Positions 6,314 through 7,933 of a stretch of 10,699 nucleotides of DNA are shown in pieces; the stretch's first letter is position 1, and every line of letters begins with the position of its first letter. Below the pieces are notes generated by a model. That model was not told where the DNA came from. It worked only from the letters and a program-made list of their open reading frames with translations, and searched no databases. The stretch comes from an uncultured Oscillospiraceae bacterium (lineage in GTDB: Bacteria > Bacillota > Clostridia > Oscillospirales > Ruminococcaceae), in the NCBI GenBank assembly GCA_900556525.1, contig USOZ01000043.1, forward strand, positions 1 through 10,699, read 5' to 3'. The position numbers and the translations under genes are program-made.

Positions 6314-7933
6314 ATGGAAATTAAAAAAATTGCGAGGATCTTTTTCGCGGCGGCTGTATCAATAATGCTTACATTTGCGCTGGCGATATCCGCTTCGGCT
6401 ATGCAGATATTCGTCAAAACGCTGACGGGAAAACATATTACTCTGGAAGTTGAACCGGGTGACAGAATCGCAGACGTTAAAACAAAAATAAGCGAGAAAG
6501 AAGGTATTCCCGCAGCTTATCAGATGCTCATGTTTGCGGGGAAAATTCTGGAAGATGACGAAACGCTGGCTGGATATAATATCCAGAAAGACGCAACGAT
6601 TCATTTGGTGCTGCGGGGACCTTCGGATCTCACAGTCACGGGCGGCACGATTGGCACGGACTATTCTTTTACAAACAACGTTATAGAAATACTGACCGAT
6701 ACGCCGCTGACTATTTCGGGTGCGACGACTGCGGAACGCATTGAGATTGCTGACGGTGTAAACGCGAATATAACCCTTGCGGGAGTGGATATCGACGTTT
6801 CGGCGATTGAAAATACCGCTGCGATAAAGATCGCTGACAACAGCACAGGCAATGTAACAATAACGCTTGCGGACGACACGGTTAATGTGCTGAAAAGCGG
6901 ATCGTACCGTGCAGGTCTGCAAAAAAACGGCGATTATATTTCCGAGGATAAGGGAAAGCTTATTATTCAGGGAGAAGCGAACGGCACAGGCTCGCTTGAA
7001 GCGACAGGCGGCACAGGCGGCGCAGGAATCGGCAGCGGTTCATCCAACGCCTCAAATATTGAAATAAAAGGCGGAAATATAGTTGCCAAGGGCGGCGAGT
7101 ACGCTGCGGGGCTTGGCGGCGGCTTGGGAAACGGTTCAAATATTACTGTAAGCGGCGGTAATTTGACTGCGATAGGCGGTGGTAGCGGCGCAGGAATCGG
7201 TTGCGGTTATAATGGTGGATGTTCAAATGTCGTTATAAATGGCGGCACCGTAACAGCAAAAGGCGGTAATGACGGAGTAGGAATCGGTGGCTTTGACGGC
7301 GGTTACTGTAATATCATCATAAGCGGCGGTTCTGTTAAAGCGGAATCAGGCGGAAACGACGTAAGCGTTATCGGCAGCAGCAAATACAGCGCAGTGACTC
7401 CCACCCTCGCAGACGGTACGACCCCCGTTTACCTTTTCACAATTCCTAACCCCGACGATAAGCCTGTCGAAATCGACGGCGCGGCTTACACGCCCGTAAG
7501 TCACAAGGGCATTGACCCCGCCGACGGAAATCTTTACGCTTACCTCACGAGCGATTTTCATACCGTAAAGGTCGGCGATACTGCGGCGAGATATAACTAT
7601 AATAATACAAATAATAGTTTTGAGGAAGTGGGAACGGCGTTTAATGTAACACCGACCGTTTCGGGAGAAGCCCTCGCTTATGGCACGGACTTCACATATC
7701 CCGCTTCTGACGGCAAACTTAACATACTCAGCGACAAGGCGATAACGATAGCGAACGCTGACCGGACTACGGCAACGTCAGACTGTATCGAGCATTCTGT
7801 CTACGGCTTTTTCGTCGGGAATGCCGTAAAGTCTGCGGTAGACCTCGAGATTTTGTTTAGCTGTGAGGGTAGGGTATACGGCGGGGTATTCGATTATAGT
7901 GCCGATTCTGCGGCGCTGGAAATTAAGGTCTGA
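6314..7933 (+). CDS. Secreted ubiquitin-domain protein with glycine-rich beta-helix-like repeats, 3'-truncated
   Basis: The start at 6314 has GGGAGG 5 nt upstream and a consensus promoter, giving 539 residues; the frame further upstream runs through the promoter and is not coding. Residues 1-29 are a signal peptide (KK, hydrophobic core, ASA cleavage site). Residues 30-101 form a ubiquitin domain. By my hand alignment 51 of 72 positions match eukaryotic ubiquitin, starting MQIFVKTLTGK, and all seven lysines (K6, K11, K27, K29, K33, K48, K63) are present. L8, H68 and V70 of the hydrophobic patch are kept, while I44 is Met. After R72-G73 comes PSD, so the LRGG tail is missing. Residues ~105-160 start a repeat module, ~226-355 carry glycine-rich repeats, and ~442-488 begin a second copy of the module. 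Residues ~489-539 are antisense of an ABC gene, so the native C-terminus is lost and no anchor is visible. The target is unknown; the protein should be extracellular. Confidence 0.88.
   Translation: MEIKKIARIFFAAAVSIMLTFALAISASAMQIFVKTLTGKHITLEVEPGDRIADVKTKISEKEGIPAAYQMLMFAGKILEDDETLAGYNIQKDATIHLVLRGPSDLTVTGGTIGTDYSFTNNVIEILTDTPLTISGATTAERIEIADGVNANITLAGVDIDVSAIENTAAIKIADNSTGNVTITLADDTVNVLKSGSYRAGLQKNGDYISEDKGKLIIQGEANGTGSLEATGGTGGAGIGSGSSNASNIEIKGGNIVAKGGEYAAGLGGGLGNGSNITVSGGNLTAIGGGSGAGIGCGYNGGCSNVVINGGTVTAKGGNDGVGIGGFDGGYCNIIISGGSVKAESGGNDVSVIGSSKYSAVTPTLADGTTPVYLFTIPNPDDKPVEIDGAAYTPVSHKGIDPADGNLYAYLTSDFHTVKVGDTAARYNYNNTNNSFEEVGTAFNVTPTVSGEALAYGTDFTYPASDGKLNILSDKAITIANADRTTATSDCIEHSVYGFFVGNAVKSAVDLEILFSCEGRVYGGVFDYSADSAALEIKV
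6401..6616 (+). other. Ubiquitin domain coding segment
   Basis: This segment encodes the 72 residues equivalent to ubiquitin M1-R72. Its first codon immediately follows the predicted signal peptidase site (A27-S28-A29), so the mature secreted protein would begin at ubiquitin Met1. Differences from the eukaryotic protein include T12H, S20G, T22R, R42M, I44M, G53D and D58G. E1 and DUB recognition normally need R42, R72 and the diglycine tail. Of these only R72 and a single glycine remain, so conjugation in the usual way is unlikely. Confidence 0.88.
6989..7378 (+). repeat. Tandem glycine-rich coding repeats (beta-helix-like)
   Basis: Within the ubiquitin-domain gene, four to five units of roughly 25-28 residues repeat a pattern such as SNITVSGGNLTAIGGGSGAG followed by a GIGxG-type turn. 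Related units are ASNIEIKGGNIVAKGG, CSNVVINGGTVTAKGG and YCNIIISGGSVKAESGG. The alternation of short beta-strand and glycine turn is typical of right-handed beta-helix surface proteins of gut Firmicutes, some of which are annotated as carbohydrate-binding. Binding here is inference only. Confidence 0.7.

What the first reader, a model, noticed from the sequence alone, without database searches (positions are those of the whole stretch)
6314..7933. A secreted bacterial protein carrying a near-eukaryotic ubiquitin domain
The sequence shows a signal peptide followed directly by a domain with 51 of 72 residues identical to eukaryotic ubiquitin (hand alignment), including all seven lysines. The predicted cleavage (ASA before MQIF) would expose ubiquitin Met1. 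Secreted ubiquitin is known from Bacteroides fragilis (BfUbb), but this gene appears to be from a Gram-positive Clostridia-type genome and is fused to glycine-rich surface repeats. The level of identity points to transfer from a eukaryote. The missing LRGG tail suggests a mimic or decoy for host ubiquitin-binding proteins rather than a conjugated tag; that role is inference.
Basis: partly seen in the sequence, partly recalled or inferred. Interest (0 to 1): 0.93.

Follow-up and report, generated by a model that had tools for sequence, protein, structure and literature searches.

The report
Bacterial surface protein wearing eukaryotic ubiquitin
This bacterial gene encodes a predicted exported surface protein that begins, right after its predicted export signal, with a ubiquitin 71% identical to the human one; the same arrangement turned up in 14 of 1,541 genomes sampled from six bacterial groups already known to hold a case, so a molecule thought to belong to eukaryotes likely serves bacteria as an outward-facing binding head.

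The parts
6239..6267 (+). perfect sigma-70-type promoter TTGACA-17-TATAAT, TG before the second hexamer
   Evidence: consensus match only, not evidence of use
6303..6308 (+). Shine-Dalgarno GGGAGG
   Evidence: sequence
6314..6400 (+). predicted signal peptide, 29 residues ending ASA
   Evidence: sequence; 29/29, 28/29, 29/29 identical in P0001-P0003
6401..6616 (+). ubiquitin domain, residues 30-101, drifted Trichomonas-like type
6617..7543 (+). right-handed beta-helix, Cthe_2159-like
7544..7786 (+). end of the first beta-helix unit and likely start of a second one
   Evidence: alignment to P0004 up to residue 492
7784..7790 (.). junction where the ubiquitin gene and a convergent ABC gene are both cut off (rearrangement or assembly join)
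   Evidence: inference
7778..8131 (-). truncated ABC transporter ATPase; its antisense supplies the false C-terminus of the finding
   Evidence: PF00005, profile 1-89 of 137

Best explanation
The gene encodes a predicted surface protein with a eukaryotic-type ubiquitin directly after its predicted signal peptide, and this ubiquitin likely works as a non-covalent binding head at the outer tip of a fibre-binding adhesin, not as a protein tag. Shown: the order of the parts; the missing LRGG; the match of the modelled stalk to the Cthe_2159 fold; the spread of the same plan over nine named bacterial phyla. Inferred: the signal peptide is cut at ASA|MQIF and frees Met1; the C-terminus, lost here, is wall-anchored as in P0001 (NPNTS, hydrophobic stretch, RKRK), which puts ubiquitin at the distal end; the beta-helix binds plant cell-wall polysaccharide; the ubiquitin came by transfer from a trichomonad-like protist, was placed at the signal-peptide boundary of an existing beta-helix gene, and is kept because it binds an extracellular partner (protist, host or bacterial) through a surface other than the Ile44 patch.
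For: (1) Position: in a survey by PF00240 alone, 15 of 15 distinct domains that I displayed start within two residues of a signal-peptide-like end (17 domains over cut-off in 14 genomes; two second copies were not displayed). (2) The same position recurs with unlike anchors: of 82 proteins, at E 0.01, 16 have an autotransporter barrel and 5 SLH domains, 3 IPTL-CTERM and 1 a T9SS tail; 12 of 85 were flagged sortase-like by a loose pattern, one of which (L028) I read as IPTL-like. (3) Ubiquitin can be the only payload: L043 ends one residue after R72; L004, L010, L025, L028 and L081 are export signal, ubiquitin and a hydrophobic C-terminal tail. (4) Constraint: in 8 of 8 divergent pairs (two loci used twice) ubiquitin dN is 0.02-0.11 against 0.30-0.63 for the rest, ubiquitin dS 0.3 to saturated; GC3 of the domain follows its own ORF (r 0.91, 73 ORFs). 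(5) Modular insertion: P0046 and L006, of one MAG by locus-tag prefix, share signal peptide (18/28) and beta-helix (84/141), and only L006 has ubiquitin between them. (6) Donor: eight diagnostic residues split 93 domains into 63 T, 29 H, 1 unclear; the H type scores 146.9 bits on PDB 5xy3_m, 149.0 on itself and 129.5 on human; 5XY3 is the Trichomonas vaginalis ribosome (PMC8860606, one passage); LRGG-linked tandem H-type polyubiquitin exists (P0122, P0124).
Against: No partner is known and no binding test exists. The residues kept in at least 92% of the survey set (among them E18, D21, K29, E51-G53, T55, D58, Y59) may be kept for the fold alone. The Ile44 drift is significant only in the 14-domain survey, not in the 93-domain set (P 0.14). 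P0004, a relative with the same plan, has only 40/72 ubiquitin identity to the window against 180/302 in the beta-helix, so there the domain is not the slower part. In 2 of 7 close pairs ubiquitin dN is not lower than the rest, and aligning repeats may inflate dN of the rest. In the window's own kin the signal peptide is as conserved as the ubiquitin, so recent exchange of the N-terminal block could explain that. No C-terminal anchor is left in the window.
Confidence: 0.45

Rival explanations
1. Structural cap: ubiquitin is a very stable, protease-resistant fold that would shield the N-terminus of exported proteins and help them fold; it binds nothing.
For: In the survey set core positions are kept (0.91) while the Ile44 face drifts (0.60); C-terminal partners are very diverse; one copy per protein in 85 of 85 by a motif scan.
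Against: Some proteins are export signal, ubiquitin and a short tail only, or ubiquitin alone (L043), so nothing is capped. A cap should diverge like other ubiquitin-like folds (recalled); here the domain changes far more slowly than the rest in 8 of 8 divergent pairs.
Confidence: 0.22
2. Classical mimic or decoy: the displayed ubiquitin occupies host or protist ubiquitin-binding proteins, E1 or deubiquitinases through the Ile44 face.
For: High identity; all seven lysines in 70 of 93 domains and intact L8/I44/H68/V70 in 50 of 93; in the 93-domain set the Ile44 face is not significantly less conserved (P 0.14). BfUbb binds human E1 covalently and inhibits ubiquitination in vitro (PMC3352274, abstract and passages).
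Against: Ile44 face less conserved in the survey (P 0.007; patch intact in 6 of 14); the window has R42M, I44M, Q49I, and 2 of its 3 differences from P0001 fall at 44 and 49. Relatives in genera I recall as free-living, such as Loktanella and Conexibacter (names).
Confidence: 0.15
3. BfUbb-like antagonism: the domain inhibits competing bacteria, here held on the cell wall or shed from it.
For: BfUbb, the only characterised relative I found, inhibits other B. fragilis strains as a mature 76-residue protein, and its signal peptide ends exactly at ubiquitin residue 1 (PMC5705921, abstract and passages). Free secreted forms exist (L043, L027).
Against: The window domain is 51% identical to BfUbb (8hm2_B) but about 70% to human ubiquitin, so it is not a close BfUbb relative; it is fused to a large beta-helix and lacks BfUbb's terminal cysteine (cysteine from PMC3352274).
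Confidence: 0.15
4. Artefact: contamination or a chimeric contig produced the fusion.
For: The contig has a suspicious junction at about 7788 where two genes are cut off, and the dapB side has GC about 33%.
Against: The junction lies about 1.2 kb past the ubiquitin domain. The same fusion occurs in P0001-P0003; kindred signal peptide-ubiquitin genes lie in nine records titled as strains and on the complete R. albus 7 plasmid; GC3 is matched to the ORF.
Confidence: 0.02

Closest known systems
BfUbb, secreted ubiquitin of Bacteroides fragilis (PMC3352274, PMC5705921)
   Same: Eukaryotic-type ubiquitin in a bacterium, signal peptide ending exactly at ubiquitin residue 1, no terminal GG.
   Different: BfUbb is a free 76-residue toxin ending in Cys; here ubiquitin heads a large, likely surface-anchored protein. 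Domain identity only 51%.
Eukaryotic ubiquitin, Trichomonas type
   Different: Predicted to be exported, single copy, no LRGG, drifted Ile44 face.
Cthe_2159 (PF14262), beta-helix that binds cellulose and polygalacturonate
   Different: No PF14262 match by sequence in the window; carries a ubiquitin head; a second helix unit seems to begin.
Ruminococcus albus 7 'ubiquitin family protein' WP_013483628.1 on pRUMAL01
   Same: Signal peptide-like ANA|MQIF, then ubiquitin (65/72 human); a beta-helix-repeat protein lies four genes upstream.
   Different: T-type ubiquitin, 246 aa, fused to a short domain without a Pfam match, not to the beta-helix itself.

Membership tests
Ubiquitin family (PF00240) | sequence over the curated cut-off and ubiquitin fold | tested here: met
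Conjugated ubiquitin modifier | C-terminal Gly-Gly after LR for activation by E1 | tested here: not met
   LR-GPSD in the window; LRGG in 5 of 85 relatives, each inside a longer chain
Conjugated ubiquitin modifier | E1/E2/E3 or deubiquitinase partners in the genome | tested here: inconclusive
   none among the 8 window proteins scanned; E2 family PF00179 in 0 of 20 genomes, but the control was silent too; no genome held for the window
BfUbb-type secreted bacterial ubiquitin | signal peptide that ends exactly at ubiquitin residue 1 | tested here: inconclusive
   ASA|MQIF seen in the sequence; cleavage not tested, SignalP not available
BfUbb-type secreted bacterial ubiquitin | free ~76-residue protein with terminal Cys | tested here: not met
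   domain continues into a beta-helix
BfUbb-type secreted bacterial ubiquitin | antibacterial activity | not testable with these tools
   needs purified protein and strains
Cthe_2159 carbohydrate-binding beta-helix | beta-helix fold of Cthe_2159 | tested here: met
Cthe_2159 carbohydrate-binding beta-helix | PF14262 sequence match | tested here: not met
   no PF14262 in the window protein at E 0.01, though a homolog, P0099, has it at 4.5e-15
Cthe_2159 carbohydrate-binding beta-helix | binding of cellulose or polygalacturonate | not testable with these tools
   needs protein

The most novel reading that the evidence does not exclude
Bacteria have captured eukaryotic ubiquitin at least twice, from a trichomonad-type and a human-type donor, and turned it into a general extracellular module: a ubiquitin displayed at the tip of surface proteins in nine or more phyla, held by whatever anchor system a lineage owns and recognised by an undiscovered outside receptor through a non-Ile44 face. 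Ubiquitin would then be a ligand between cells, with BfUbb one special case.
Probability: 0.35. Interest if true: 0.93.

Novelty: new variant of a known kind. Interest (0 to 1): 0.8.

Why it matters
Ubiquitin is the textbook eukaryotic protein; a paper on BfUbb calls B. [quoted passage not shown] A patchy but many-phylum set of exported ubiquitins, 80 of 85 without the LRGG tail and the other 5 with it buried inside a longer chain, suggests that bacteria reuse the fold outside the cell. They are natural, long-evolved ubiquitins freed from the eukaryotic conjugation machinery, a natural experiment on which residues the fold needs. They also make testable what an extracellular ubiquitin binds, and point to gene flow from gut protists into gut bacteria.

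Tried and rejected
Rejected or left open: (a) A chimeric gene or contamination for the ubiquitin part (see rivals). (b) A claim from the first 85 loci that Ala precedes Met1 (82 A, 3 G of 85): one of the six search patterns was AMQIFVKT, which contains that Ala, so I rest the claim on the PF00240 survey. (c) That lysines are kept above chance: P 0.038 in the pattern-found set, 0.25 in the survey; not claimed. (d) That ubiquitin-only proteins keep the Ile44 patch better than long ones: 6 of 9 against 40 of 71, P 0.73. (e) Bacterial polyphyly by tree: too few columns (82 of 115 inner branches open); holding all bacteria as one clade gave p-AU 0.052, not a formal rejection (six long rows dropped from 118). 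(f) E2 search: silent control, no conclusion. (g) Phage records: no match. (h) The fold search was filled by ubiquitin and the 72-381 helix; other parts were not searched alone. Of the 15 displayed survey domains, L115 was left out of the 14-domain site analysis because its first strand is out of register; the core and Ile44-face position lists there are recalled.

No report of surface-anchored or multi-domain bacterial ubiquitin was seen in the listings of searches (open-licence PMC library only; capped lists). The 2023/2024 paper of Jiang et al. on BfUbb was not held; I saw it only in a reference list.

Full report
What is there. The ORF at 6314-7933 (+) starts at ATG with GGGAGG five bases upstream and a perfect TTGACA-17-TATAAT at 6239-6267. 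Its first 29 residues look like a signal peptide ending ASA (by eye). Residues 30-101 are ubiquitin: PF00240 E 6.5e-24, 51 of 72 identical to human and 54 of 72 to the Trichomonas type, all seven lysines. The differences from human include R42M, I44M and Q49I. The chain goes on LR-GPSD, without the conjugation tail.

The false end. P0004 aligns to residue 492 and then continues into a second beta-helix, whereas the window runs into the antisense of an ABC ATPase ORF that is itself cut off at the same point. So about 7790-7933 is not native. Whether this is a true rearrangement or an assembly join cannot be told here. It does not touch the ubiquitin domain, which is 69/72, 72/72 and 72/72 identical in P0001, P0002 and P0003, while residues 102-420 are 303/319, 256/317 and 261/317 identical. 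In the more distant P0004 the order is not so: 40/72 against 180/302.

How wide it is. A scan of the 84,980-species collection with patterns from the N-terminal 109 residues gave 235 relatives, of which the best 80 were kept; the viral collection gave 5 more. By record title the 80 lie in nine named bacterial phyla (Actinomycetota, Bacillota, Bacteroidota, Cyanobacteriota, Lentisphaerota, Pseudomonadota, Synergistota, Thermodesulfobacteriota, Verrucomicrobiota), plus one candidate division KSB1 record and one archaeal MAG contig (Methanothrix) that may be mis-binned. Nine are titled as strains, not MAGs: Leeia oryzae, Clostridiales NK3B98, Xylanibacter brevis, Dyella acidiphila, Pseudovibrio denitrificans, Conexibacter sp., Loktanella sp., Paracidovorax valerianellae, Frisingicoccus caecimuris. 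A plasmid search found one more, on the complete pRUMAL01 of Ruminococcus albus 7; phage records gave none. A survey by PF00240 alone, centres left out, gave genomes over cut-off: 4 of 390 (class of L006), 2 of 239 (class of the Loktanella), 1 of 294 (class of the Prevotella MAG), 1 of 228 (class of Leeia), 2 of 197 (class of the Bacilli MAG L064), 4 of 193 (phylum of the Akkermansiaceae MAG L067); in all 14 of 1,541. These groups were chosen because they hold a known case, and at least three survey domains (L095, L096, L102) are the same as loci (L038, L040, L029).

The common plan. In the survey, 15 distinct domains were displayed, from all 14 genomes, and each begins within two residues of a signal-peptide-like end (two further domains over cut-off, second copies in G029 and G1508, were not displayed). 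Residue 1 is F, W or I in three of them, which fits a buried hydrophobic residue rather than a start codon. Of 82 full proteins, all match PF00240; at E 0.01, 16 carry an autotransporter barrel, 5 SLH, 2 (Pfam) or 3 (NCBIfam) IPTL-CTERM, 1 a T9SS tail; 12 of 85 were flagged sortase-like by a loose pattern, one of them better read as IPTL-like. Many others have no anchor that I could name. Some proteins are ubiquitin plus a short tail only. LRGG is kept in 5 of 85.

Insertion at a boundary. P0046 and L006, from one MAG by their shared locus-tag prefix J6A41 (names of P0046 and P0027; P0027 is the L006 protein), share signal peptide (18 of 28) and beta-helix (84 of 141), and differ by the ubiquitin between them. 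Several other beta-helix relatives also go straight from signal peptide to helix (by eye).

Two donors. Eight positions (12, 20, 22, 25, 54, 57, 60, 64) vary together: 63 T-type, 29 H-type, 1 unclear of 93 distinct domains. The proportions are biased by the H-like query. The H consensus scores 149.0 bits against itself, 146.9 against the Trichomonas vaginalis chain 5xy3_m and 129.5 against human. H-type polyubiquitin with LRLRGG junctions occurs in metagenomes (P0122, P0124; organism not named). Held as one clade, H bacteria plus H eukaryotes fit better than the free quick tree by 31 log units (p-AU 0.90); all bacteria as one clade is 46 log units worse but not formally rejected (p-AU 0.052). 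The window has 4 H, 1 T and 3 other states at the eight positions, so it is a drifted H type.

Constraint. GC3 of ubiquitin follows the rest of its ORF, r 0.91 over 73. In 8 divergent pairs ubiquitin dN is 0.02-0.11 against 0.30-0.63; in 7 closer pairs it is lower in 5, and one further pair is identical. Which surface is kept: in 14 survey domains core positions are at 0.91, the Ile44 face at 0.60, other surface at 0.78, and the face is lower than random non-core positions (P 0.007); in the 93-domain set the face is at 0.78, random 0.83, P 0.14 (lists recalled). This speaks for a fold and perhaps another face being selected, rather than canonical ubiquitin recognition.

Mechanism. In these plans ubiquitin sits where the functional tip of a surface protein sits: farthest from the C-terminal anchor. 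With the constraint, and with proteins that carry little else, I read it as a binding head; the partner is unknown. In R. albus 7 the gene lies in a run of mostly exported-looking proteins: a beta-helix protein with PF18889 repeats, a PI-PLC-domain protein, small proteins with a VTIP motif, a protein ending in an NPATG sorting-like signal and a dockerin protein, which fits a surface, fibre-binding setting. BfUbb shows that an exported ubiquitin can act on other bacteria (PMC5705921, passages), which remains a rival.

Novelty. Searches listed BfUbb papers but none on anchored or multi-domain bacterial ubiquitin (open-licence PMC only). I file it as a new variant of a known kind, exported bacterial ubiquitin, with a breadth that seems undescribed.

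Noticed in passing
window 232-5982 (-): Type I-C CRISPR genes cas3, cas5c, cas8c and cas7 in a row on the other strand, just upstream of the ubiquitin gene.
   Followed up: partly
window 7778-8131 (-): ABC ATPase cut off at the same place as the ubiquitin gene: two convergent genes both truncated, a rearrangement or an assembly join.
   Followed up: partly
window 8568-9317 (+): dapB in a stretch of about 32-34% GC, against 44-54% in most of the window.
   Followed up: no
window 9645-10568 (-): 307-codon ORF with no Pfam or NCBIfam match at E 0.01.
   Followed up: no
L119 4517-10309: R. albus 7 plasmid run: beta-helix protein, PI-PLC-domain protein, small VTIP-motif proteins, ubiquitin protein, NPATG-ended protein, dockerin protein; looks like a surface fibre or adhesin cluster.
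   Followed up: partly
L094/L101 and L112/L117: Two ubiquitin genes within about 1 kb of each other in one genome (G029, G1508).
   Followed up: no
L115: Ubiquitin at the start of a 2,675-residue open frame in a genome of the Verrucomicrobiota-phylum survey.
   Followed up: no
L081-L085: Five IMG/VR contigs encode exported ubiquitin; no annotated phage record matched.
   Followed up: partly
Cthe_2159 family: Rumen fungi are reported to have taken Cthe_2159 from Clostridiales (PMC6712302, passages); here a Clostridia-type Cthe_2159-like protein carries a protist-type ubiquitin, so gene traffic in the gut may run both ways in one protein family.
   Followed up: no
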